This document shows, in pieces, positions 37,245-51,037 of a stretch of DNA of 58,338 bases. The position numbers and the translations under genes are program-made. The stretch lies in assembly GCA_019058425.1 (NCBI GenBank), contig JAHPYZ010000019.1:1-58338 (forward strand), written 5' to 3'. The notes beneath the pieces are model-generated. The model was not told where the DNA came from. It saw only the letters and a program-made list of their open reading frames with translations, and made no database searches. Position 1 is the first letter of the stretch, and each line of letters begins with the position of its first letter. The stretch comes from Promethearchaeota archaeon (GTDB lineage: Archaea; Asgardarchaeota; Lokiarchaeia; Sigyniarchaeales; SOKP01).

Positions 37245-37775
37245 TTATTTACTATTTATATTTTTTAACATTCTCTGAGTTAAATCCAGAAAAGCTTCTT
37301 CGACATTTTCTCCAGTTTTAGCAGAGGTCTCAACATAATATGTTTTCTCTTTCTTAGCAAACACTTGAGCATTCTCTCTTTCGTAAAGTTCATCACTTTT
37401 TTCAACTAAGTCTAGTTTATTCCCAATTAATATAAATGGTATATTTGCACCCGCGTATTCATGCAAATCTTCTAACCATTCTTCAAGTTCTTCAAATGTA
37501 TGCCACCTTGATAGATCAAATACGATTAATGCTCCATTTGCTCCATCAAAAAAACTTGATCTTAAAAATTTATATCTATCTTGTCCACCAATATCCCAAA
37601 TTTGCAATTTTATTTTAGTATTAGGTTTGTAATCAATAATTTTTGATAAAAAATCAGCACCAATAGTTAATTTGTATCTAAAGGAGAATTTATTCTCTAC
37701 AAACCGATGTAGAAGTGAAGTTTTACCGACAGCCCCTGGACCGATAATAATTACTTTGAAAACAAAAAGTGACAT
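37245..37775 (-). CDS. Ras/Rab-like small GTPase (third of three)
   Basis: A 176-residue small GTPase, Ras superfamily, Rab-like. G1 is GPGAVGKTS (12-20), G2 the Thr of KLTIGADF, G3 is WDIGGQDR (near 61), G4 is GNKLDL (near 119) and G5 is ETSAKTG (near 150). The Gln of DIGGQ needed for hydrolysis is present. The C-terminus, KNINSK, has no Cys for lipid attachment, so the protein is not prenylated in the usual way. It is more diverged than its two neighbours. Asgard archaea hold many such GTPases; roles are presumed in membrane or cytoskeletal signalling. Confidence 0.93.
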   Translation of the reverse strand: MSLFVFKVIIIGPGAVGKTSLLHRFVENKFSFRYKLTIGADFLSKIIDYKPNTKIKLQIWDIGGQDRYKFLRSSFFDGANGALIVFDLSRWHTFEELEEWLEDLHEYAGANIPFILIGNKLDLVEKSDELYERENAQVFAKKEKTYYVETSAKTGENVEEAFLDLTQRMLKNINSK

Positions 37776-37889
37776 AATGGAAGATCAATTAATAATACAG
37801 TTCTAATAAATAATCTCCATCAGATATTTAAATATTTTCGAAAAGATCGAGTTTATATAGAATAACTTTTTGAATAAAACGCTATGTAT

Positions 37890-38420
37890 TTATGCAGAAT
37901 CAAGTGTTTTTATAATCCTCTGAGTAATATTAACGAATGCATTTTCTACATTATCACCTGTTTTAGCTGATGTTTCCATATAAAAACAGTTTTCATTATC
38001 AATATATTGAGATAATTCATCTCGATCGACCACTTCACCTATTTCAGAAATCAAATCAGATTTATTTCCTATCAGTACAACTGGAATATCTACTTCAATT
38101 AATTTTTTCATATCGGAAAGCCATTCTTTCATTTTTGAAAACGTTTGAGCTCTTGAAAGATCAAAAACCACTAGTGCGCCATTAGTTCCATCATAAAAAT
38201 TACGACGTAATGATTTAAACCGATCTTGGCCCCCAATATCCCATATTAATAACCTAGCTTTCTTATCTTTCTTATATACGATATTTTTACTTAAAAAATC
38301 TACTCCAATAGTGAATTTGTATTCGAGGGAAAACTTATTATTTACAAATCGGCGTATAAGAGATGATTTTCCTACCGCTGCTGGACCAATAATGATAATT
38401 TTAAATGTATAATCTTCCAT
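37890..38420 (-). CDS. Ras/Rab-like small GTPase (second of three)
   Basis: A 176-residue small GTPase starting MEDYTFKIIIIGPAAVGKSS. Motifs: G1 GPAAVGKSS (12-20), G2 Thr in KFTIGVDF, G3 WDIGGQDRF, G4 GNKSDL, G5 ETSAKTG. An upstream in-frame ATG at 38489 would add 23 hydrophobic residues not seen in the sister proteins, so ATG 38420 is preferred. There is no C-terminal Cys (ends KTLDSA). It is very like the gene at 38581, about two thirds identical by eye, pointing to recent tandem duplication. Confidence 0.93.
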   Translation of the reverse strand: MEDYTFKIIIIGPAAVGKSSLIRRFVNNKFSLEYKFTIGVDFLSKNIVYKKDKKARLLIWDIGGQDRFKSLRRNFYDGTNGALVVFDLSRAQTFSKMKEWLSDMKKLIEVDIPVVLIGNKSDLISEIGEVVDRDELSQYIDNENCFYMETSAKTGDNVENAFVNITQRIIKTLDSA

Positions 38421-38580
38421 TTTGCTAATACTTAAGAAATATTTATATATAGTCATCATATAAAAGTAAAATAATAAATATAGTTCCAATTCGAAAATCT
38501 TATAAGGGTAAATTATACTAAAAAAAGCAAAAAAATTGAGAATACAAATATCCAGAGTATTGAATTTTTTTTTATTTAAG

Positions 38581-39111
38581 CTATGAGAATTTATCTACCA
38601 TCTTTCGAGTTAGATCCAGAAAGGCATTATCAACGTTATCGCCTGTTTTCGCCGAAGTTTCAATATAAATGCAATTTTCGGCTTGCGCAAACTGAAGGGG
38701 CTCTTTTCGATCAATGATTTCCCCAATTTCTGGTATTAAATCAGATTTATTTCCAATAATTATAACTGGAAAATCTCTTTCAATAGATTGGCGTGCATCT
38801 GAAAGCCATTCCTTCATTTTCGTAAAAGTATTTGCTCTTGAAAGATCAAACACAACTAAAGCACCATTAGTTCCTTCATAAAAGCTCCTACGTAACACTT
38901 TAAACCGTTCTTGTCCTCCTATATCCCACAGGGTTAGTTTAGCAGATTTTCCTGGCTCATAATCCAATGTTTTAGTCATGAAATCAACTCCTATCGTGAA
39001 TTTGTAATGTAGAGAAAACTTATTTTCTACAAATCTACGGATGAGACTGGATTTCCCTACTGCGGCAGGACCAATTACAATCAATTTAAATGTATATACT
39101 GGTTCAGACAT
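38581..39111 (-). CDS. Ras/Rab-like small GTPase (first of three)
   Basis: A 176-residue small GTPase. G1 GPAAVGKSS, G2 Thr in KFTIGVDF, G3 WDIGGQERF, G4 GNKSDL and G5 ETSAKTG are all intact; GGQERF is the Rab-type switch II form with the catalytic Gln. It ends RKMVDKFS without a prenylation Cys. Gaps of 91 and 114 bases separate the three GTPase genes, and each has its own AT-rich upstream region, so they may be transcribed separately. No GAP, GEF or roadblock-domain gene is seen nearby. Confidence 0.94.
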   Translation of the reverse strand: MSEPVYTFKLIVIGPAAVGKSSLIRRFVENKFSLHYKFTIGVDFMTKTLDYEPGKSAKLTLWDIGGQERFKVLRRSFYEGTNGALVVFDLSRANTFTKMKEWLSDARQSIERDFPVIIIGNKSDLIPEIGEIIDRKEPLQFAQAENCIYIETSAKTGDNVDNAFLDLTRKMVDKFS

Positions 39112-41096: not shown

Positions 41097-41954
41097 ATGA
41101 AAAAGAAATGGTATAAAGGAAAGGTATTTGTAATCACTGGAGCTGGTGGTGCTATTGGAAGTGAAGTGTGTCGTAGATTTGCTTCCTTAGGGATGAGAAT
41201 ATATTTGTTGGATCTTCCTAATACGCCACTAGATAATCTAAAGGAGGATCTCAAAGATTTAGGAGCAGAATATGTAGAAAGTTTTGAATTTGATGTTAGT
41301 AATCGAAATCAAATTGAAGAAGTTATTAAGAAGATTGGGGAAAAAGAAAAATATATAGATATTTTATATAACAATGCGGGTATAGGGACTACTTGTTCAA
41401 TAACCAACGGTGGAACATTTGAAGAATATCGAAAAATTATGTCTATAAACGTTGATGGTATGTGGTTGGTACTTCAAGCAGCCTTACCATATATTGGACG
41501 ACCCGCTCCTACTAATAAATACCCAGATAGAAAAGAAGCACAATTGATATTTACTTCAAGTTCAGCAGGAAAAACGGGGATCCCTAATATGGCCGCATAC
41601 TCAATGAGTAAGTTTGCTATAGTTGGTTTAGCAAACTCTCTTAGATTAGAATATAAAATGCAAAACCATAATATTCAAGTCATAACAATCTGTCCTGCAC
41701 CAGTTAAGACAAAATTTTGGGAATCTACTCCTGAAATGAAAAATTGGGTCAAAATGTATCAAAAACGGGGTCATTTATATAAATATGTGGAGGTAAAAGA
41801 TGTTGGAAAAGTAGTAATGAAAGCTTCACGCAAATATAAGAGAGAAGTTTTTATACCTAGATGGTGGTGGTTATTAGCTTGGTTACAACTTACAAGTCAT
41901 AAAGCGGTAGGAAAATTGTTAATAAAAATAGAAAAAAAGAAAACAAAAATGTAA
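41097..41954 (+). CDS. Short-chain dehydrogenase/reductase
   Basis: A 285-residue NAD(P)-dependent oxidoreductase. TGAGGAIGSEV (near 13) is the cofactor motif, and the Asp ending YLLDLP favours NAD. NNAG lies near 93, Ser of SSSAG near 154, and the catalytic Tyr and Lys are in YSMSKFA (near 167). The C-terminal part, FIPRWWWLLAWLQ, is hydrophobic and may associate with membrane, as in SDRs that act on lipids or steroids. It is followed 36 bases later by a methyltransferase on the same strand. Substrate unknown. Confidence 0.9.
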   Translation: MKKKWYKGKVFVITGAGGAIGSEVCRRFASLGMRIYLLDLPNTPLDNLKEDLKDLGAEYVESFEFDVSNRNQIEEVIKKIGEKEKYIDILYNNAGIGTTCSITNGGTFEEYRKIMSINVDGMWLVLQAALPYIGRPAPTNKYPDRKEAQLIFTSSSAGKTGIPNMAAYSMSKFAIVGLANSLRLEYKMQNHNIQVITICPAPVKTKFWESTPEMKNWVKMYQKRGHLYKYVEVKDVGKVVMKASRKYKREVFIPRWWWLLAWLQLTSHKAVGKLLIKIEKKKTKM

Positions 41955-41989
41955 AAAGATTAAAATTTTCATCTTACTAGAATACTATT

Positions 41990-42709
41990 ATGACAAAAAA
42001 AGCATATGAACCTTTTGGTGTAGCTCTTGAGGATTTCTATAATGGTAAAAAAGGAATTGAGGTTACATTATTTCGAGATGATGGGATAGAATGGAATGTA
42101 CCTATTGAATATTTCTTCAGAGGGCCTAAAAATTTTTCAAATATAGAAAAACAAGCACTACAATTATGTAAAGGTAGAGTCTTAGATATCGGAGCAGGAG
42201 TTGGACCACATGCCTTGGAACTTCAAAAATTAGGTCTTGAAGTTTATGCAATTGATATATCCTCTCATGCTTGTCGTATAATGAAAAAAAGGGGGATAAA
42301 AAATGTTCAATGCACAGATTGCTATAATTTAAAAATGGATTCATTTGATACGATTCTTTTACTAGGACGTTCAATCGGGTTTGTGGAGAATTTAAATGGA
42401 ATGAAAAAATTCTTATCTTACTGTAAAACTCTCCTGAATCCAGAAGGAAATATAATTCTTGATTCAATAGATTTTCCTTCAATTAAAGAACAAATTATTG
42501 TTGATTATCAGGAAAGAAACCGAAAGTTAGGAAAGTATAGTGGTGTGACAATATTTCAGATGAAATACAAAAATAACATTGGAGATAAAATCCAAAATTT
42601 ACAAATAGATCCTGATACACTTAAACAAATTACATTAGAAATGGGATTATCATGTAAGATCCTTGGTAAGGATGAAAATGAAAATTATTTAGCTATAATT
42701 TCCCCCTAA
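41990..42709 (+). CDS. Class I SAM-dependent methyltransferase
   Basis: A 239-residue methyltransferase with motif I VLDIGAGVGPHALELQKLG (near 61), motif II VYAIDIS, post-I DTILLLGRSIGFVE and motif III LLNPEGNIILDSID. The fold is complete. It probably shares a transcript with the SDR gene upstream. Substrate unknown, possibly a small molecule. Confidence 0.85.
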   Translation: MTKKAYEPFGVALEDFYNGKKGIEVTLFRDDGIEWNVPIEYFFRGPKNFSNIEKQALQLCKGRVLDIGAGVGPHALELQKLGLEVYAIDISSHACRIMKKRGIKNVQCTDCYNLKMDSFDTILLLGRSIGFVENLNGMKKFLSYCKTLLNPEGNIILDSIDFPSIKEQIIVDYQERNRKLGKYSGVTIFQMKYKNNIGDKIQNLQIDPDTLKQITLEMGLSCKILGKDENENYLAIISP

Positions 42710-42762: not shown

Positions 42763-43368
42763 TCATTCCTTTTTCTTCCTTTTAAACTTGAGATATCTTT
42801 TATAAATCAAGACACCATAACTAAGAATTATCATGACTGTGAAGATAATTAAAATTCCTAGATTTTGAAAATCTGTACCTATGAGAACTCCGTGAACATA
42901 AGCTAAGAATAATGCAATGTAATTTAATGCATGGATTATTCTCCAGCCCTTGATAAACTTTTTCCTCAAAAGTGATCCAAAAATAGCAAAATATATTAAA
43001 ATAAGTGCTAATCGACCCCCTAAAGACCAAAAGCCGTACCAAGAACTAAAATCTGGAACAAACACTTCTATGTTATCTACAGAAACAGCAAATATCAAAG
43101 GATGGAGTGTTACCAATAAAAGCCCTGTTAATGAATAGACATGATGTATCTTTACAAATGGTTTTCCAAACATTTTATACAACTTAACTACAAAGGGAGT
43201 CATCATTGTCGCCACAAACATTGAAGTAAATCCAAATATCGCTCCAAACCTAATAAAAAAATCAGCAACACTATTAAAAGGGGTGGAAAGGAATAATATT
43301 AAGATTAGAATATACAATCCAACTGTCGGTAAAATAATATATATAGCTTCTTTCTTTAGAGGAGACAT
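42763..43368 (-). CDS. Ferric-reductase-like transmembrane cytochrome b protein
   Basis: A 201-residue membrane protein with about six spans, related to the ferric reductase/MsrQ transmembrane domain. The likely haem ligands are His in FVKIHHVYSLTGLLLVTLHP (near 73-91), and His in RIIHALNYIALFLAYVHG (near 143-160). It lacks the flavin and NAD domains of full ferric reductases, so a partner would have to supply electrons. It is a single gene on the minus strand, convergent with the methyltransferase at 42709. Electron transfer across the membrane is inferred from the family. Confidence 0.8.
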   Translation of the reverse strand: MSPLKKEAIYIILPTVGLYILILILFLSTPFNSVADFFIRFGAIFGFTSMFVATMMTPFVVKLYKMFGKPFVKIHHVYSLTGLLLVTLHPLIFAVSVDNIEVFVPDFSSWYGFWSLGGRLALILIYFAIFGSLLRKKFIKGWRIIHALNYIALFLAYVHGVLIGTDFQNLGILIIFTVMIILSYGVLIYKRYLKFKRKKKE

Positions 43369-43517: not shown

Positions 43518-43853
43518 CTAGATTATTTTTTGCTCTTTTAGAACTTTAAATGAATATCTCACATATGGATAACTTACTGATCCACTTGCCATCATTCCCA
43601 TTTTAATTGCTTCAATGATCTCTTTTTTGCTTGACTTAGCACTTAAACATTCTTTTATGTGGTATTCAATACACTCTTTACATTTTGAGACAATTGAGGC
43701 AGTAACCATTGTTAGTTCCTTATATTTTTTGGGAATGCTTCCACCTGAAAATGCATCGTCATCAATTCTACCAAATTCGATGTAAAATCTATCTGAATTT
43801 TTCATTAAATCCATTAGATACTTTCGTTCTTTACCAAAATCATTTTGTTCCAT
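43518..43853 (-). CDS. AhpD/carboxymuconolactone-decarboxylase-like protein
   Basis: A 111-residue all-helical protein of the carboxymuconolactone decarboxylase family. The redox-type motif SKCKECIEYHIKECL (near 63) has the CxxCxxxH of AhpD-like peroxidase partners. The following KKEIIEAIKMGMMASGS block is typical. It may take part in thiol peroxide defence. It stands alone with its own promoter region. Confidence 0.85.
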   Translation of the reverse strand: MEQNDFGKERKYLMDLMKNSDRFYIEFGRIDDDAFSGGSIPKKYKELTMVTASIVSKCKECIEYHIKECLSAKSSKKEIIEAIKMGMMASGSVSYPYVRYSFKVLKEQKII

Positions 43854-44317: not shown

Positions 44318-44929
44318 ATGAGTGGACCATTGATTAATCTAGAAGATGAATACCTTCTTTCAATTGATGACATTATTAACCAAATTGCTCAAGGTGTTGC
44401 AAATGCTCAAAGAGCATTAGATGAACAATCGCTAGAATTACAGAGAAGACTATATACAGACGAAAACCTTAAACATTTAAGGGAAGTAGGAATTCAAGCA
44501 ACTTGGTATAGAATTCCTGAAGTTACCGCAAGTATAAAAGTATGTATTTCTACACATATTGAAAAAGACGAACAAACGCAGAAATTGAGGCCATTTCTCT
44601 TATTCACCCCCTATAATGCAACTACTAAAAGTACCTATGAATTAGATTATGAAGGAACGAGTGAAGTGAGTTTCAAAATCATACCTATTCCAACACCCTC
44701 TTCAGCTACATATACAACAGTTCCTAAATTGCTTGGTCAAAAACTTGGAGACGGAGAAGGAATAAAAAGTATACTTGAAGAAGCAGGATTAATTTTAGGA
44801 ACTATAACTAAAGAAACAAGTGATCAGCCTGAGGACACAGTGATTAAACAAGATCCAGAACCTGATTTCAGTACTTACCTTGGTAACTCTGTAAATATAA
44901 CGGTTTCTGAAAAGCAAAATCCTTCGTAA
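44318..44929 (+). CDS. Operon protein 1: helix/beta domain plus PASTA domain
   Basis: A 203-residue soluble protein, first of nine genes. Residues 15-50 (IDDIINQIAQGVANAQRALD) match the N-terminal helix of operon proteins 3 and 4. A beta region follows (ATWYRIPEVTASIKVCIS to LDYEGTSEVSFKIIPIP, 58-130), ending with the strand and P[VI]P motif shared by proteins 2, 3 and 4. Residues about 137-200 are a PASTA domain (TVPKLLGQKLGDG, ILEEAGLILG, DTVIKQDPEPD). PASTA domains usually sit outside the cell and bind peptidoglycan or related ligands, but no signal peptide or membrane span is present, so here it is probably a binding or assembly module inside. Function unknown. Confidence 0.7.
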   Translation: MSGPLINLEDEYLLSIDDIINQIAQGVANAQRALDEQSLELQRRLYTDENLKHLREVGIQATWYRIPEVTASIKVCISTHIEKDEQTQKLRPFLLFTPYNATTKSTYELDYEGTSEVSFKIIPIPTPSSATYTTVPKLLGQKLGDGEGIKSILEEAGLILGTITKETSDQPEDTVIKQDPEPDFSTYLGNSVNITVSEKQNPS

Positions 44930-44945
44930 AAAAAAGTGAGAAATT

Positions 44946-45359
44946 ATGGCAGATGAAGAAAAAAGTAATGAAATTGAAAAATTAAAGAAGGAATTAGAAG
45001 CAGTTAAAAAAGAACGGGATGGATATAAAGAAGATCTAAAAAGAATCCAGGTAACAAAAGCCCAAAAAGCTTCACCTACATTATTAGCAAGTTCTTTTGT
45101 AAATGCAATGGAAACGATGAGAAAGGAAATAAAAAGACCTGAGGAATCTCCAGTTGATTATAGAATTAAAAATTTTGATGTTAAGCTAAAATCTGGTGTT
45201 GGAGTAGATAAAAATAACGAATTAACATTCATACTTCCAAAAGCAGAAGAATTAACACCCGATAAATTAAGTACGATAAAATTTTCAATAAATCCTGTCC
45301 CTAAGTATAAACCAAGAATTAAAAAGGAGAAAAAGGAAAATGGAATGTCGGATGAATAA
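44946..45359 (+). CDS. Operon protein 2: coiled coil plus short beta domain
   Basis: A 137-residue protein starting 17 bases after protein 1, with GTGAG before the ATG. Residues 5-40 form a Lys/Glu-rich coiled coil (EIEKLKKELEAVKKERD). A beta region follows, YRIKNFDVKLKSGVGV to STIKFSINPVP, that keeps the final strand and PVP motif of proteins 1, 3 and 4 but lacks the long hairpin and the LAKGIA-type helix. The tail is very basic (KPRIKKEKKE). Perhaps an adaptor that joins the paralogous subunits through its coiled coil. No known family recognised. Confidence 0.65.
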   Translation: MADEEKSNEIEKLKKELEAVKKERDGYKEDLKRIQVTKAQKASPTLLASSFVNAMETMRKEIKRPEESPVDYRIKNFDVKLKSGVGVDKNNELTFILPKAEELTPDKLSTIKFSINPVPKYKPRIKKEKKENGMSDE

Positions 45360-45397
45360 GACTAAATTAATAAAAAATATATTATGGAGGTAAAATT

Positions 45398-46519
45398 ATG
45401 TTTTATCCACGTTTGATGCCTCGAAATTCAGCTGGAATTGAAGCTCGTAGAGTAGCAGGTGCTATGACTAGCATGCGTATTGATGAACTTATCGCCAATC
45501 TAGCAAAAGGTATTGCTGCGGGACAATTAGAATTAGATAAAGTGTGTATGGAGATTGCTGTATTCATGGGAGACGCCCAAATTGAATTCGGTAAGAAGCC
45601 AGGAACAGATGAACCAGATTTATTAAGCCTGATAGAATTGGGATTTACCCCTAATTTTTACCAGTTTGTTGATACTATTTTAGAAGTAAGAGTTGCTATA
45701 TCATCAACCTATGAAGAAACTAGAGAATATGACTATAGTACCACCCAAATTCAAAACAATGAATTAAAAAAGCAGAATGATTATGCAAATAAGAGAAATC
45801 AAAGTACTTCAGGACTCGGATTCATTTGGGGCGGATTTGGACTAGGACTAGGAAGAACAAGGGCAACAAGTTCTTCTGAAACTTCTGGTTCTTCTTCATA
45901 TAAAAGTACAAATTTATATGTACGTACCGTAGATGCCGCCTATTCTTCTACATATAACTATTCTGTAGAAGGTTCTTCACTCATAAAAACTAAGATATTA
46001 CCTGTTCCCCCACCGACAGTATTGGAAGAAATAATAAGAGCTAAACTAGCCCAGCGACGAGAAGAAATAGATTATGAACAAAATTTAAATTATTTAACTA
46101 AGGTATTACCTGAAATTAAAATTTTAGTTGACAACCTAATTATACCAGAAAATTCAATAACTCTTACAAAATCAAGAATGAATCAACTTAAAGATGGAAT
46201 TACTAAGATAAACAACAAATATTATGGAATTAAACCTGAACAATGGATAATTATAGCTGACCTTGAAGAGCGTGAAATTGCTGATGGAGCACTGGAAGTT
46301 AGTAACGATAATATGGATAAATTACTTGGACTATTTTCACCTGGAGAGGATAATGTGAGTGATATTGGTGCTGGAAATACTTGTCTTGGAACAATTAAAG
46401 AAAATCTTAAAACAATATTTAAAAATAGTCTTGATCGAATGGAGAAAGGATTACCACCTATAAAAGAAGAGTCGCAAGAGGAAGCTGTTATTGCGGAACC
46501 AGAAACGGGAGGAGTTTAA
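45398..46519 (+). CDS. Operon protein 3: paralogous subunit with long Gly/Ser-rich insert
   Basis: A 373-residue protein with GGAGGT before the ATG. The helix RIDELIANLAKGIAAGQLEL (27-46), GFTPNFYQFVDTILEVRVAIS (83-103) and VDAAYSSTYNYSVEGSS ending in TKILPVPPP (near 205) are shared with protein 4. Between them lies a Gly/Ser/Thr stretch (about 134-170) rich in GFGLGLGR and SSSETSGSSS that could form a long beta hairpin. The C-terminal 170 residues are helical and not shared with protein 4. There is no signal peptide. It is probably a structural subunit of a cytoplasmic assembly; a pore-forming hairpin is one possible reading. Confidence 0.7.
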   Translation: MFYPRLMPRNSAGIEARRVAGAMTSMRIDELIANLAKGIAAGQLELDKVCMEIAVFMGDAQIEFGKKPGTDEPDLLSLIELGFTPNFYQFVDTILEVRVAISSTYEETREYDYSTTQIQNNELKKQNDYANKRNQSTSGLGFIWGGFGLGLGRTRATSSSETSGSSSYKSTNLYVRTVDAAYSSTYNYSVEGSSLIKTKILPVPPPTVLEEIIRAKLAQRREEIDYEQNLNYLTKVLPEIKILVDNLIIPENSITLTKSRMNQLKDGITKINNKYYGIKPEQWIIIADLEEREIADGALEVSNDNMDKLLGLFSPGEDNVSDIGAGNTCLGTIKENLKTIFKNSLDRMEKGLPPIKEESQEEAVIAEPETGGV

Positions 46520-46523
46520 ATAG

Positions 46524-47270
46524 ATGGCAATGAACTTTAGTAATCGATTTGATATAGCTGAGGAAACTCTAAAAGTAGGTAATGCGTTAGCAAGCGTAAA
46601 ACTTGATAGAATGATTGTAAATTTAGCTAAGGGAATTGCATATGGACAATATGAATTAGATAAAGTTGGAATTAATATCACTAAATTAATGGGTGTTCCT
46701 GGAGTAGTATCAATTGGTGATGACCGTTTATCAATGTTGGAGTCAGGTTTTATACCATCTTTTTATCATTTTGTTGATACCATCATTGAATTAAAAATGG
46801 AAGTAAATATTCGTGAGGAGGATAATCGAGGGCTCGCTACCAGAATAGCTACCTCGACAGAAGTCACAACAGACATCAATACAGAGGTTAGTGCAAAAGC
46901 AGGAGGTGGGTTTGGACCATTCACTGCAGAGGCGGGTTTTAAATCGAGTTTTGGTATTAAATCTACATCAGCATATTCAAGAGCTGTCGATGCAACATAT
47001 AGTCAAAAATTTTCTCAGGATCTTTCTGCTACGAGTTTAATGCGAACAAAGATAACTCCTGTTCCTGCACCAGAATTATTAATTGAGCGAATCAAGATTT
47101 TACTAGAAAAATTAAGAGAACAAGCAGAAGATGAATCTAGAAATGAAGATGGATCATTAGATAATGAAAAGTTGAGTAAAGTACTGATGAGAAAGATAAA
47201 AGATAAAATCATTACAGGTGCTGAAAGTATGATCTCAGGAATCCTTCCATCTTCAAGTAGTCCGAGTTAA
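46524..47270 (+). CDS. Operon protein 4: paralogous subunit with amphipathic hairpin
   Basis: A 248-residue paralogue of protein 3, beginning 4 bases after its stop with GGGAGGAG as ribosome site. KLDRMIVNLAKGIAYGQYEL (27-46), GFIPSFYHFVDTIIELKMEV (71-90) and AVDATYSQKF ending in TKITPVPAP (near 180) align with protein 3. The middle part, TEVTTDINTEVSAKAGGGFG then PFTAEAGFKSSFGIKSTS, alternates polar and apolar residues around a Gly tip, the pattern of an amphipathic beta hairpin. The C-terminal helix ends in a Ser-rich tail. Same inferred role as protein 3. Confidence 0.7.
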   Translation: MAMNFSNRFDIAEETLKVGNALASVKLDRMIVNLAKGIAYGQYELDKVGINITKLMGVPGVVSIGDDRLSMLESGFIPSFYHFVDTIIELKMEVNIREEDNRGLATRIATSTEVTTDINTEVSAKAGGGFGPFTAEAGFKSSFGIKSTSAYSRAVDATYSQKFSQDLSATSLMRTKITPVPAPELLIERIKILLEKLREQAEDESRNEDGSLDNEKLSKVLMRKIKDKIITGAESMISGILPSSSSPS

Positions 47271-47353
47271 CATTTAGGACATAAAAATTTAAAATTTTTT
47301 ATTTTTAATTAATCAAATTATAGCTAATAGTCATATTTCGGGAGATTTACTAT

Positions 47354-47755
47354 ATGGATCCATTAGAACGTTTATTTGGGGCATATCTCAAAGATATTCC
47401 AAAAAATTTACCTGATAAATCTAGAATTATAAAAGAGAAGATATTATACTCCAGCTATGGACAGAAAGATCCATTAGAACGCTTATTTTGGGAATATTTT
47501 AAAGGGATACCAAAAGTTTTAACTGATCGTTATAAACTGGTATTAGAAAGAATACTATATGACCCATCCATCAGAAAATGTCCTATAGAACAAATAATAG
47601 GCTTAGGTTCATTTAATATCCCTTTCAACATTTCAAATCGAACTAAATTAATAAAAGAAAAAGTTATTTTCCAGTATACTCAAGAAAAAAGAAAATCAAA
47701 CGAAAAAGATGTCCATATTTTAAATGAAGATATTTTCCAATTAAATGTTGAATAA
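47354..47755 (+). CDS. Operon protein 5: triple-repeat protein
   Basis: A 133-residue protein made of three repeats of about 37 residues: DPLERLFGAYLKDIPKNLPD (2-21), DPLERLFWEYFKGIPKVLTD (39-58) and a weaker CPIEQIIGLGSFNIPFNISN (near 76-95), each followed by a basic helix such as KSRIIKEKILY. The repeats are helical and probably serve protein contacts. A related copy seems to open protein 6. GGGAGAT precedes the ATG by about 8 bases. Not a known family. Confidence 0.65.
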   Translation: MDPLERLFGAYLKDIPKNLPDKSRIIKEKILYSSYGQKDPLERLFWEYFKGIPKVLTDRYKLVLERILYDPSIRKCPIEQIIGLGSFNIPFNISNRTKLIKEKVIFQYTQEKRKSNEKDVHILNEDIFQLNVE

Positions 47756-47779
47756 ATTCGATTAAGTAGGTATGTTTAA

Positions 47780-48784
47780 TTGAAGGAAAAAAAAAATCAT
47801 AAAATTGAAGTACCTAATATATCCATTGAAGAAGCTTTAAGACTCTATTTATCTCTAATTTATCCGAAGGGATTACCCACTGGAGTTGATATAGATCAAT
47901 TACGAGCTTTATTAGTTAAAAAAATTGCAAAAGATCGTCCTGATTGGGATAATAAGTTTAGGAGAAAAGAAGAATCAAAAATTATCAATACAGAAAAATC
48001 TTATTCACAATTAAAACAAGAGTTGATCCAAAAATCTCGTGAATCTGAGGTTCCTTCTGATCCAGATGAAAAATTTTTTTACTTTAGAGCTCAAGAAGCT
48101 CTTCGCAATAGAATAATGAGAAAAGAAGAAGAAAAAGAAAATAAGAAAAAGAATGAATTAATTCAGAGGCTTATAAATAGTAAAAAAGGTAAAATATATA
48201 AACCATCTTTAGAGAAAATTTTAGAAATTAAACAGATCTACGAAGCTATATTAAGAAACAAAATGATCTTTCAAAAAGATTTACCTGCATCAGTAAAGGA
48301 AATCCTACTAAATTTAGAACATCCCCAACTTGAATATAGTTCATATATAAAACTATTTTCGCCCTCTTCTAACAATTCCTCTCATTTCGATCAAAATAGG
48401 CGAGAAATGAATAATTTATTCTCAAATCCAAAAGAAAAACCTAAAGATTATCCCGAATTAAAAAAAACTGAGACAGGTTCCCAAAATTTATACACAAAGG
48501 ATAAAAAATCACCTATTAATCCTCTTAGTAGGGAAAAGAATTTATCCATTAAAGACAAGAAAGGGGATATAAAATCTCTGAATAGTTCAAAAAATCTAAC
48601 AATTAGGGAGAAAAAGTCCAGATTTGAAACTCTGCAAAATGAGAGATTCTTCAGCCCTAAATTTAATCCGAAACCTCTAAAAATTACAAGTATGGAAATG
48701 TATGAAATTGATGAAAATTTAAAAATTATATTCAGAATTGATAAGGAAAAAGATGTAAAATTAGATAATATAGAAATATTTTAA
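47780..48784 (+). CDS. Operon protein 6: repeat-like helix plus charged linker protein
   Basis: A 334-residue, very charged soluble protein. Residues 13-52 (ISIEEALRLYLSLIYPKGLP then DIDQLRALLVKKI) look like the repeat of protein 5. The middle is Lys/Glu-rich helix, residues about 200-300 are a low-complexity Ser/Lys/Asn linker, and the last 30 residues (SMEMYEIDENLKIIFRIDKE) form beta strands. The start is TTG 47780, with TAGGT eight bases upstream; the next in-frame ATG lies more than 100 codons inside. A flexible tether or scaffold role is possible but not shown. Confidence 0.6.
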   Translation: MKEKKNHKIEVPNISIEEALRLYLSLIYPKGLPTGVDIDQLRALLVKKIAKDRPDWDNKFRRKEESKIINTEKSYSQLKQELIQKSRESEVPSDPDEKFFYFRAQEALRNRIMRKEEEKENKKKNELIQRLINSKKGKIYKPSLEKILEIKQIYEAILRNKMIFQKDLPASVKEILLNLEHPQLEYSSYIKLFSPSSNNSSHFDQNRREMNNLFSNPKEKPKDYPELKKTETGSQNLYTKDKKSPINPLSREKNLSIKDKKGDIKSLNSSKNLTIREKKSRFETLQNERFFSPKFNPKPLKITSMEMYEIDENLKIIFRIDKEKDVKLDNIEIF

Positions 48785-48811
48785 AATTAAAGTAATAAGT
48801 TCGAATTTTCG

Positions 48812-50110
48812 ATGAATTTTTCTCAACTTGAACAAGAAATATTTACTTTTAGAAAAGAAATTGATTCCAATCCTTCAAAGAATTGGTGGATTAAGGAAAA
48901 ATATATCAATTTGGGGCGTAATAATCTCCCAATTTATATAATCGAATTTTCTGATAAAATAGATGTATTAGGTGATGATTTACTCGATGAACCACTCATT
49001 GCTTCAAATCATCCATTTCTTCATTTCAAATCAATATCAAGTCTACAATCTGAAGTAAAAAGAATGTATTGGCAACCAGTTGAGAAAATAGAACTTATAA
49101 CCCGACTTTATCGATTCTTATCAATGTATAAAGAAGATTATCTGCAACCCCCAGGGACTCGGTCTATCACTAAAGGAATTCATAGACCACATCCACGGTT
49201 AAGAGGATTATGTTTTACTTATAAAATTTCTTCTCCAGGACATACAATTATAGGGATTGGTCCTAAAAAGTGTTCTGAGAAATTGGGTGCTGTTACAGGA
49301 AGAGTCCTAGATGAATCAAAAAATCCGTTGAATGGGATTCAAGTAATACTAAGTGTAGTAAAGGCAGAAAAAAGTATACTGTTCTTCAAACAAGAAACTA
49401 ATAAAAATGGAGAATTTTGGTTTTCCAAAATTCCTTCTGGAGATAACCTCCAATATTTTATTTGTATAGAAGGAAAACAGTTTAGAAATATTGTTATTGA
49501 TCAAAAACCTTTTGGAAAAATACAGGGTAAAATATATAATGCAAAATTAAATCCTCTTATTTTGAGTATTAATTTCTGTTCCCCTGATGGTGAAATATTC
49601 AAAGCCCTAAGTGATCACTCTGGACAGTTTATAACTGAATTTCTCCCACCATTCTCATATAATTTGAAAGTAGAGGGTTTTGAATTTTATTTTAGTTTTA
49701 ATTATTCCGGTGATACACTTATCTCAGGAATAATAAAAGATGTCTATAGTAATCCTATAAAAAAAAGACAAGTAAAACTAAAGTCAAAAGGGAAGCAAAT
49801 TCAAAAAACAACAACAGATGTGAATGGTTTCTTTACATTCGAAAATCTCTATCCTGGAGAATATACTCTTGAAATTCCTAATATTGAAAGTTATTTATCA
49901 GGAGAGGGAACAATTAGTGGTAATATTAAAAACTTAGACAAAAATCCAATTAGAAACCAATGGGTGCATTTGGTAAGCAAATCAGGTAATAAAATTATAG
50001 ATATTGCCAGAACGGATGAAAATGGGAACTTCAGATTCTTTGAGTTGGAATCAGAAATGTACACTATCCGAGTTCCTAGTTATGAATTTTTAATTAAACG
50101 AGGTGAATAA
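48812..50110 (+). CDS. Operon protein 7: Cna/carboxypeptidase-regulatory-like beta modules
   Basis: A 432-residue protein. Residues 1-165 are a unique N-terminal domain with SKNWWIKEKYINLGRNNLPI. From about 165 on come four beta-sandwich modules: GAVTGRVLDESKNPLNGIQV, GKIQGKIYNAKLNPLILSIN, TLISGIIKDVYSNPIKKRQV and GTISGNIKNLDKNPIRNQWV. Three of the four go on into T..NG.F.F..L..G.Y.L, the repeating pattern of carboxypeptidase-regulatory-like or Cna-B domains. These normally form stalks on secreted proteins, yet there is no signal peptide here. It is probably a spacer or fibre within the assembly. Confidence 0.7.
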   Translation: MNFSQLEQEIFTFRKEIDSNPSKNWWIKEKYINLGRNNLPIYIIEFSDKIDVLGDDLLDEPLIASNHPFLHFKSISSLQSEVKRMYWQPVEKIELITRLYRFLSMYKEDYLQPPGTRSITKGIHRPHPRLRGLCFTYKISSPGHTIIGIGPKKCSEKLGAVTGRVLDESKNPLNGIQVILSVVKAEKSILFFKQETNKNGEFWFSKIPSGDNLQYFICIEGKQFRNIVIDQKPFGKIQGKIYNAKLNPLILSINFCSPDGEIFKALSDHSGQFITEFLPPFSYNLKVEGFEFYFSFNYSGDTLISGIIKDVYSNPIKKRQVKLKSKGKQIQKTTTDVNGFFTFENLYPGEYTLEIPNIESYLSGEGTISGNIKNLDKNPIRNQWVHLVSKSGNKIIDIARTDENGNFRFFELESEMYTIRVPSYEFLIKRGE

Positions 50111-50115
50111 ATCAA

Positions 50116-50430
50116 ATGAGAGAGAATAATTTATTTAAAGATGAACATCAAATAGAAGTAAAAGCGGGTCAAACTTTGGTTTTAGAAATTATAGCAAGAC
50201 CTAAACGTCCATTATATGATGTATCATCATCAGTAAAACCTGCAAATATAAGGATCAAGTTACATGAATTCAAATTCAGAAGACCTGCAAAGATTAAAAA
50301 GTTGAAGCTTTTTAATCCTAAAAATTCTTATATCATACCAATTAAGGATGGTGTTGGTGAGCTAGTAGGGATAGAACCCGGAACATATTCTTTATCTTCT
50401 GAAATTGAAGATAATAATAAAAATGATTAA
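50116..50430 (+). CDS. Operon protein 8: small beta protein
   Basis: A 104-residue protein that begins 6 bases after the stop of protein 7, in another frame, with GAGGTGA overlapping the end of that gene. The early part, EVKAGQTLVLEIIARPKRP, looks like the last strands of a Cna-type module, and the end, ELVGIEPGTYSLSSEIED, repeats the 'L..G.Y' pattern. It may complete the last module of protein 7 as a separate chain. A basic middle part, KFRRPAKIKKLKLF, stands out. Function unknown. Confidence 0.55.
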   Translation: MRENNLFKDEHQIEVKAGQTLVLEIIARPKRPLYDVSSSVKPANIRIKLHEFKFRRPAKIKKLKLFNPKNSYIIPIKDGVGELVGIEPGTYSLSSEIEDNNKND

Positions 50431-50473
50431 ATTATGGAGAATTAATTCTAAAATTATTGGAGTCGAATAAAGA

Positions 50474-51037
50474 ATGAATGTAAGCAACGTTAGGGAGGAA
50501 TTTTTTGCCGAGAAAGATCGAGTTTATGAAGTAATCCATAGTCTGGGAGCATTCAAAAAGTATACAATCTCAAATATAGAAAATCCAATTAAACCAGTTA
50601 TTCGCATACAGGTGAAGATGGGTGAAAAAATTGAGGGAGAGAGAATATTATCAGATAGAATCTATGAACTTGAAAAGGGAGATCGTATTAAAATAATAGA
50701 AAATATTCGTCACGTTAAAGCTGTAACTCAAAATGGAAATGAACATGAAGTTGATTTATGTCAGATAATTTGGAAAGATGGAAAACAATTTAATGATTTT
50801 TCTAATTATTATTGTTGGACAATATTTAAAGCAGAAAAAAAAATCAAACCTTTTGTACCTATAGACCTTCCACAAGTTACTCTGAATTCACAAATGCTAA
50901 CAAAAGTAGATCTGCAAGTTTCAGATGAATATAAAGGATTAATAATTTTAAAAATCGAAAATGTGCCTATTCGGATGAAAAACCGATCATTAAAATTAGA
51001 GAAACCACACAGAATTAGTTTTCGAAAAAAAAATTAA
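50474..51037 (+). CDS. Operon protein 9: unknown beta-rich protein
   Basis: A 187-residue soluble protein, last gene of the operon. Mixed helix and strand; GEHEV-like NGNEHEVDLCQIIWKDG and FSNYYCWTIFKAEKK are its most distinctive parts. The tail is basic (RKKN). No family recognised, no signal peptide or span. A 200-base gap with an AT-rich stretch follows before the next gene, so the operon ends here. Confidence 0.6.
   Translation: MNVSNVREEFFAEKDRVYEVIHSLGAFKKYTISNIENPIKPVIRIQVKMGEKIEGERILSDRIYELEKGDRIKIIENIRHVKAVTQNGNEHEVDLCQIIWKDGKQFNDFSNYYCWTIFKAEKKIKPFVPIDLPQVTLNSQMLTKVDLQVSDEYKGLIILKIENVPIRMKNRSLKLEKPHRISFRKKN

What the first reader, a model, noticed from the sequence alone, without database searches (positions are those of the whole stretch)
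44318..51037. Nine-gene operon of unrecognised proteins: likely undescribed intracellular assembly
Nine same-strand genes with small gaps and good ribosome sites encode proteins none of which I can assign to a characterised system. Four (44318, 44946, 45398, 46524) share a beta domain ending in the P[VI]P motif, two others (47354, 47780) share helical repeats, and two (48812, 50116) carry Cna-like beta modules. None has a signal peptide or membrane span. The mix of paralogous subunits, repeat proteins, a PASTA domain and stalk-like modules is what a multi-subunit structure would need.
Basis: partly seen in the sequence, partly recalled or inferred. Interest (0 to 1): 0.9.

Follow-up and report, generated by a model that had tools for sequence, protein, structure and literature searches.

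The report
Cross-domain operon of DUF2589-like proteins
One archaeon carries a nine-gene operon, not found in its relatives, whose core genes stand in the same order in one bacterium; it probably makes an unstudied multi-protein structure inside the cell, but what that structure does is not known.

Summary
The nine-gene operon is real. P1, P3 and P4 are one protein family; P2 is not shown to belong. P5 and P6 share no repeat. P7 carries Cna-like modules; P8 has no detectable domain. The operon is an insertion: its P1/P3/P4 family was found in none of 226 other genomes of the phylum searched, and in one same-genus genome, G002, the flanking genes lie about 1 kb apart without it. Composition and codon usage match the flanks, so it is not recent or a bin contaminant. 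The order P3-P4-P5-P6-P7 recurs in one Cytophagales bacterium, the P5 match being weak. Short tandem pairs of the family occur in three further genomes and on a Sphaerotilus plasmid. Profile comparison points weakly to Pfam DUF2589, which is nearly unstudied. Most likely this is a horizontally spread cytosolic hetero-oligomeric assembly. Insertion and paralog pairing are shown; assembly, direction of transfer and function are inferred or unknown. Both structure predictions failed.

The parts
44318..44929 (+). P1, 203 aa: P3/P4-family domain (about 1-132) followed by a PASTA domain (134-197)
   Evidence: Pfam PASTA 1.1e-7; hhalign against the P3/P4 + ChlA/ChlB profile prob 97, E 1e-10
44946..45359 (+). 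P2, 137 aa: coiled-coil-like start plus small C-terminal part; possible counterpart of the coiled-coil gene (ChlD) of the five-gene operon
   Evidence: only sub-cut-off matches, many to coiled-coil families; C-terminal part scores 16.8-18.2 against ChlC, ChlD and DUF2589-partner C-termini, shuffle maxima 12.5-16.1, 0 of 40 shuffles reach it, but prob only 2-3
45398..46519 (+). P3, 373 aa: family member with a long insertion in the beta domain and a C-terminal extension
   Evidence: 42% identity to P4 over the matched part, E 2.8e-28; Cytophagales ortholog 40%
46524..47270 (+). P4, 248 aa: family member, tandem partner of P3
   Evidence: Cytophagales ortholog 53-59% identical
47354..47755 (+). 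P5, 133 aa: three repeats of about 37 aa
   Evidence: repeat z-scores 17, 13, 6, none of 500 shuffles reach them; weak similarity to the gene in the same position in L004, z 3.3, 3 of 500 shuffles reach it
47780..48784 (+). P6, 334 aa (TTG start): conserved N-terminal ~60 aa, then charged and by reading probably flexible
   Evidence: ortholog in L004 28% identical, z 24
48812..50110 (+). P7, 432 aa: unknown N-terminal domain (about 1-155) plus CarboxypepD_reg/Cna-like modules
   Evidence: Pfam CarboxypepD_reg 4.6e-27, 3 stretches; L004 ortholog 29% identical, N-terminal part included
50116..50430 (+). P8, 104 aa: unassigned; by eye its start reads like the last strand of P7's final module, in another frame
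   Evidence: no Pfam match at E<=1; sequence of the junction
50474..51037 (+). P9, 187 aa: unassigned
   Evidence: no family; in 30 related genomes one marginal match, E 0.0097; nothing convincing in the PDB; not searched in bacteria

Best explanation
A horizontally spread accessory operon that makes a cytosolic hetero-oligomeric protein assembly. Shown: the nine genes lie at a place where a same-genus genome has none of them; P1, P3 and P4 are paralogs; P3 and P4 each have their own ortholog side by side in a bacterium, so the pair is older than the parting of the archaeal and bacterial cassettes (moderate tree support) and both copies were kept. Inferred: P3 and P4 (probable N-terminal helix plus a beta domain ending in P[VI]P) co-polymerise or form a hetero-oligomer; P1 carries the same domain with a PASTA module and acts as cap or adaptor; P2 and the repeat or linker proteins P5 and P6 join subunits; P7 (with P8), a chain of Cna-like modules on a conserved head, is a stalk or surface arm. 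Cargo or target unknown. The archaeal copy is most likely an old acquisition from a bacterial source.
For: Same order P3-P4-P5-P6-P7 in L004, Cytophagales MAG contig JANQHS010000348.1, the one relative confirmed among 133 candidate stretches. Adjacent pairs of the family in 6 of 6 loci found: window, L004, L021, L022, L023, L052. P3 orthologs group together and P4 orthologs group together (supports 89/95 and 86/87; 40% and 55% identity, against 26-33% between P3 and P4). Family profile: 0 of 226 other genomes of the phylum at E<=0.01. P6 profile: only 7 weak matches in charged stretches of 226. Empty site in G002: orthologs of the genes at 42763 and 51219 lie 1052 bp apart, and none of the nine proteins matches there at E<=1e-6. 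Operon GC 0.309 against 0.304 and 0.286 in the flanks; codon distance 0.102 against 0.082-0.138 for 30 flank subsets. No membrane-strength stretch in P1-P9. No enzyme family above its cut-off in any of the nine.
Against: No structure supports assembly: AlphaFold gave mean pLDDT 44 (P4) and 53 (P7), unusable. No P1- or P2-like gene precedes P3 in L004, and the profile that includes P1 finds only P3 and P4 in that bacterial genome; P8 and P9 cannot be judged there because the contig ends in P7. P5's counterpart is weak. The bacterial cassette is known from one short MAG contig, so the direction of transfer is not proven. Only one of the five same-genus regions fetched (G002) shows the empty site; in the other four the upstream flank gene was not found near. 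In the tree 1 of 10 inner branches has full support. PASTA and Cna-like modules are usually extracellular (recalled), which sits badly with a cytosolic site.
Confidence: 0.45

Rival explanations
1. A coat or docking layer on an intracellular body (storage granule, lipid or mineral inclusion): the N-terminal helices bind the surface, the beta domains and low-complexity insertions form the layer, P7 projects from it.
For: N-terminal motif with AQ..LD invariant in 11 sequences; Gly/Tyr-rich insertion in the bacterial P3; no membrane-strength stretch and no enzyme family above cut-off. A cluster of DUF2589-related genes (AF0414-AF0417) rises on lactate in Archaeoglobus (PMC3949148, one passage seen), so expression follows nutrition there.
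Against: No granule enzyme or known coat protein recognised in the operon. That the helix is amphipathic was not computed. The Archaeoglobus link rests on the weak DUF2589 relation.
Confidence: 0.18
2. An accessory conflict or defence module: a core of DUF2589-like proteins senses or scaffolds, and partner genes differ between hosts.
For: Patchy distribution, insertion at an otherwise conserved site, plasmid copy. Canonical DUF2589 operons stand beside a subtilase (L056, 8 bp downstream, same strand), a patatin gene (L057) and a CHAP gene (L058).
Against: Of six window and four related proteins scanned against PADLOC, only the PASTA part of P1 matched (PD-T4-6 kinases); no toxin or nuclease family above cut-off among the nine.
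Confidence: 0.15
3. Remains of a virus or particle: structural proteins (fibre-like P7, beta-domain subunits) of an integrated element.
For: Fibre-like module chain without a membrane-strength stretch; insertion at a clean site. Sub-cut-off matches of P1's PASTA stretch to Gp5_OB (E 0.018) and of a P7 module to the tail protein J Ig-like domain (E 0.0083).
Against: No relative in IMG/VR by three pattern-based scans, nor of P4 or ChlB in 50,697 phage records; PHROGs matches all weak and of unknown function; no integrase, terminase, portal or capsid family above cut-off among the nine.
Confidence: 0.07
4. Assembly or binning artefact: bacterial DNA joined to an archaeal contig.
For: The genome has 7.44% estimated contamination, and the nearest relatives are bacterial.
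Against: Flanks on both sides on one contig, with 17 of 22 flanking genes at 67-86% identity in the same order in G002; GC and codon usage equal to the flanks, not to the bacterial locus (0.31 against 0.45).
Confidence: 0.03

Closest known systems
Cytophagales cassette on contig JANQHS010000348.1 (L004), no annotation held
   Same: P3, P4, P5-position gene, P6 and P7 in the same order and strand; 40, 55, 26, 28 and 29% identity, the 26% of P5 being barely above chance
   Different: No P1/P2 upstream; contig ends within P7, so P8/P9 unknown; GC 0.45
Five-gene operon (ChlS, ChlA, ChlB, ChlC, ChlD; my names) of three Chlorobium-like genomes (L021-L023) and of Sphaerotilus sulfidivorans plasmid pSna507_unt10 (L052), all five 'hypothetical protein' on the plasmid
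   Same: Tandem pair of the same protein family (P3/P4 profile against ChlA prob 98, E 2e-14; against ChlB prob 97, E 5e-11), followed by a small gene and a coiled-coil-like gene
   Different: Short family members without the long insertion or the PASTA domain; no P5-P9 seen. 'Chlorobium-like' is my reading of gene content; the tools give these genomes no names
Pfam DUF2589 (PF11655) operons
   Same: Soluble tandem genes, N-terminal part with an AQ motif, beta domain with a P-x-P motif (by reading). Profile-profile prob 37-53 depending on the rows used, E about 1e-4 to 4e-4, above reversed and column-permuted controls; P1 resembles the N-terminus of the DUF2589 partner gene (prob 78)
   Different: No match of P1-P9 to PF11655; P3/P4 alone and ChlB alone give prob below 1; no separate partner or helical third gene recognised in the window
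PASTA Ser/Thr kinases; SdrD/Cna-type adhesins
   Same: One kind of domain each in P1 and P7
   Different: No kinase domain and no membrane-strength stretch found

Membership tests
DUF2589 (PF11655) | whole-protein score above the Pfam cut-off of 23 bits | tested here: not met
   no PF11655 row for P1-P9 at E<=1; own genome no match
DUF2589 (PF11655) | homology by profile-profile comparison | tested here: inconclusive
   P3/P4+ChlA+ChlB profile: prob 45, E 2e-4, score 36.0, reversed target 24.7, maximum of 20 permuted targets 14.6; with P1 added prob 38, reversed 27.9, permuted maximum 23.7; P3/P4 alone and ChlB alone prob below 1. Another run gave prob 46 but aligned only 46 N-terminal columns. 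P1 alone prob 0.2
DUF2589 operon | partner gene and helical third gene next to the DUF2589 gene | tested here: inconclusive
   seen in L045 and L056-L058; in the window no separate partner gene recognised, but P1's N-terminal domain resembles it, prob 78, while the family profile with P1 added gives only prob 12
Five-gene operon of L021-L023 and L052 | tandem pair of the P3/P4 family | tested here: met
Five-gene operon of L021-L023 and L052 | small first gene (ChlS) and third gene (ChlC) | tested here: not met
   no pair of a window protein with ChlS or ChlC above prob 20
Five-gene operon of L021-L023 and L052 | coiled-coil gene (ChlD) | tested here: inconclusive
   P2 C-terminal part against ChlD C-terminal part: prob 2.9, yet 0 of 40 shuffles reach its score
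PASTA Ser/Thr kinase (NF033483, PD-T4-6) | kinase domain | tested here: not met
   only about residues 124-200 of P1 match; 25.9 bits against a cut-off of 450; PADLOC likewise
Cna/Sdr-type surface adhesin | exported: signal peptide or membrane anchor | tested here: not met
   best 19-residue hydropathy mean in P7 1.15; a proxy only, no signal-peptide predictor available
contractile injection system / phage tail | sheath, tube, baseplate or AAA ATPase gene in the operon | tested here: not met
   no such family above cut-off; below it Gp5_OB on P1's PASTA stretch (E 0.018) and the protein J Ig-like domain on a P7 module (E 0.0083); PHROGs matches all of unknown function

The most novel reading that the evidence does not exclude
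A previously undescribed class of self-assembling intracellular structure, built from paired DUF2589-like subunits with a PASTA-bearing cap and Cna-like arms, passed as a cassette between bacteria and an Asgard-type archaeon.
Probability: 0.3. Interest if true: 0.88.

Novelty: new variant of a known kind. Interest (0 to 1): 0.6.

Why it matters
If the assembly reading holds, one cassette gives a testable entry to a protein family group found in archaea and bacteria and almost absent from the open literature searched (one paper for 'DUF2589'; none for 'PF11655'). It also gives a case, with an empty site, of a multi-gene structural-looking operon shared by a bacterium and an archaeon that is probably of the Asgard group.

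Tried and rejected
AlphaFold of P4 with four sequences: mean pLDDT 44, pTM 0.22. AlphaFold of P7 with two sequences: mean pLDDT 53, pTM 0.33; only the beta-sandwich part is passable. I ran no fold search on either, because matches would mean nothing.

Rows set aside before counting: own-genome third hit C28:16563 (E 0.11), by reading a CheC-like gene beside chemotaxis genes; G139 (E 0.009, 894-aa frame) and G344 (E 0.0066, stops inside), treated as chance; seven other genomes (E 4e-4 to 6e-3, frames of 549-603 aa, charged middle of P6), treated as low-complexity matches; G011 for P9 (E 0.0097), marginal; G042 for PF11655 (E 0.91, below cut-off). None of these five sets was followed further, except C28.

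Not searched: P2, P5 and P8 were given to no genome or contig search of their own, and P9 only to 30 related genomes and the PDB. The scans of genome contigs and viral contigs work from short peptide patterns and find close relatives only.

P2 as fourth paralog: not supported. P5/P6 common repeat: rejected. Virus origin: no support. Plasmid search with P3: none. RNA families and tRNAs: none in the window. Promoter and terminator scan: as many as in shuffles. The tree does not resolve how the P3/P4 set joins the ChlA/ChlB set, and P1 has a very long branch. PDB sequence searches gave nothing convincing. Paper searches: 'DUF2589' (one paper, one passage read), 'PF11655' (none), Asgard + Bacteroidetes + horizontal gene transfer + operon (10 of 18 listed, listing and abstract starts only), AF0414-AF0417 (10 of 22 listed, listing only). 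The operon was not seen in these; the library holds open papers only.
Full report
THE OBSERVATION. I call them P1-P9. Upstream, 464 bp separate P1 from a divergent carboxymuconolactone-decarboxylase-like gene; downstream a GNAT gene follows after 181 bp. Library searches give a PASTA domain in P1 and CarboxypepD_reg/Cna-like modules in P7, and no match above a curated cut-off for the other seven; PHROGs give only weak matches of unknown function. PADLOC, given six of the nine, matched only the PASTA part of P1. No protein has a membrane-strength hydrophobic stretch.

WHICH PROTEINS ARE RELATED. P3 and P4 are clear paralogs (42% identity over the matched part, E 2.8e-28). P1's first 132 residues belong to the same family when compared with a profile of P3, P4 and their bacterial relatives (prob 97, E 1e-10). 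Ten positions are invariant in 11 sequences: A, Q, L and D of an AQ..LD motif near the N-terminus, G and Y in the middle, a serine, and three prolines (P-x-P-x-P) at the end of the beta domain. P2 could not be tied to the family: against its profile 6 of 40 shuffles score as high. The C-terminal part of P2 resembles parts of partner genes elsewhere a little (0 of 40 shuffles, but prob 2-3), which I count as a lead only. P5 has three repeats of about 37 residues; they do not recur in P6.

WHERE ELSE IT OCCURS. P4 has no match at E<=0.01 in 57 related genomes, 18 of the same genus and 18 of the same family. An 11-sequence profile of the family finds nothing in 226 other genomes of the phylum, of which 45 in the set are at least 90% complete and at most 5% contaminated. 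The P6 profile gives seven weak matches in charged stretches among the same 226, which I do not count. P2, P5 and P8 were not searched on their own, P9 only in 30 relatives, with one marginal match. The pattern scan of the 84,980-species genome collection, which reaches close relatives only, confirmed one relative among 133 candidate stretches: a 10.4-kb contig of a Cytophagales MAG. That contig carries P3, P4, a gene in the P5 position, P6 and P7 in the same order, at 40, 55, 26, 28 and 29% identity. The P5 counterpart is weak on its own (3 of 500 shuffles reach its score). No P1-like gene was found in that genome with a profile that includes P1. In 395 genomes drawn from its phylum 5 gave a match at E<=0.01: that genome, three genomes with short tandem pairs, and one probable chance hit. 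In 390 genomes of its order only that genome matched. The P7 N-terminal domain gave that genome plus one chance-like hit in 395. The three genomes with short pairs share a five-gene operon; the same operon lies on a Sphaerotilus sulfidivorans plasmid, all five genes annotated as hypothetical. In 6 of 6 loci the family stands as an adjacent pair. No relative was found in viral contigs or, for P4 and ChlB, in phage records.

IT IS AN INSERTION. In G002, a genome of the same genus, 17 of the 22 non-operon window genes tested between 28932 and 57822 have orthologs in the same order, at 67-86% identity. Missing are 32792, 41097, 41990, 43518 and 52983, and all nine operon genes. The genes next to the operon, at 42763 and 51219, are 1052 bp apart there; between them lies a 178-aa ORF with an overlapping 98-aa one on the other strand, and no operon protein matches. 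Of five same-genus regions fetched, only G002 keeps both flanks together, so the empty site is seen once. The genes at 41097, 41990 and 43518 may have come separately. GC, GC3 and codon usage of the operon equal those of the flanks and the GC differs from that of the bacterial locus. So the operon is very unlikely to be bin contamination or a recent arrival. Direction is inferred: the family is found in several bacteria and in a single genome of this phylum, so a bacterial source is likelier.

RELATION TO KNOWN FAMILIES. From memory I suspected Pfam DUF2589. No window protein matches the Pfam model. I took DUF2589 proteins from Bacteroidota (7 of 118 genomes have one) and one Vibrio plasmid, and compared profiles. 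The P3/P4+ChlA+ChlB profile reaches prob 45, E 2e-4 over 160 columns, above the reversed target (36.0 against 24.7 in score) and 20 permuted targets (maximum 14.6). With P1 added it falls to prob 38, with a permuted maximum of 23.7. P3/P4 alone and ChlB alone show nothing, while ChlA alone gives prob 46. P1 alone reaches prob 78 against the N-terminus of the gene that follows DUF2589, but the family profile with P1 gives only prob 12 there (all), and P1 alone shows nothing against DUF2589 itself. A further comparison gave prob 46 but aligned only the N-terminal part. I therefore say 'DUF2589-like', not 'DUF2589'. The one paper found says that a cluster of DUF2589-related genes in Archaeoglobus is up-regulated on lactate (PMC3949148; one passage seen).

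HOW IT MAY WORK. P3 and P4 have kept their identities since before the archaeal and bacterial cassettes parted (supports 89/95 and 86/87). Kept, adjacent paralogs without enzyme families or export signals are what a hetero-oligomer would need. The insertion-rich beta domain, the PASTA-tipped paralog, the coiled-coil-like protein, the repeat protein and the chain of Cna-like modules fit a structure with body, cap, linker and arm. This is inference; neither structure prediction succeeded. A granule coat, a conflict module and a particle remnant are the rivals, in that order.

VERDICT. The finding stands as an unassigned, inserted, structural-looking operon whose core order is shared with one bacterium.

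Noticed in passing
window 50100-50160: P8 starts 5 bp after the stop of P7 in another frame, and its first residues read like the missing last strand of P7's final Cna-like module; P7 and P8 may once have been one gene.
   Followed up: partly
L056 5076-8522, L057 6053-9671, L058 5578-8414: Canonical DUF2589 operons in Bacteroidota: DUF2589, partner, helical gene; a subtilase follows 8 bp downstream in L056, a patatin gene lies near in L057, a CHAP gene in L058.
   Followed up: partly
window 41097-42709 and 43518-43853: SDR, methyltransferase and CMD-like genes beside the operon also have no ortholog at this place in G002; the site may be an insertion spot.
   Followed up: no
window 37245-39111: Three tandem paralogs of 176-199 aa that cross-match each other's orthologs; G002 has three tandem copies too.
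   Followed up: no
L052 11646-14425: Sphaerotilus sulfidivorans plasmid pSna507_unt10 carries a five-gene operon of the same family, all genes annotated as hypothetical protein.
   Followed up: yes
L004 5575-6738: The bacterial P3 has a Gly/Tyr/His-rich insertion inside the beta domain.
   Followed up: no
L021 2293-3618, L023 1202-2815: The coiled-coil-like gene of the five-gene operon differs in length between near relatives (441 and 537 aa), by reading through the number of internal repeats.
   Followed up: no
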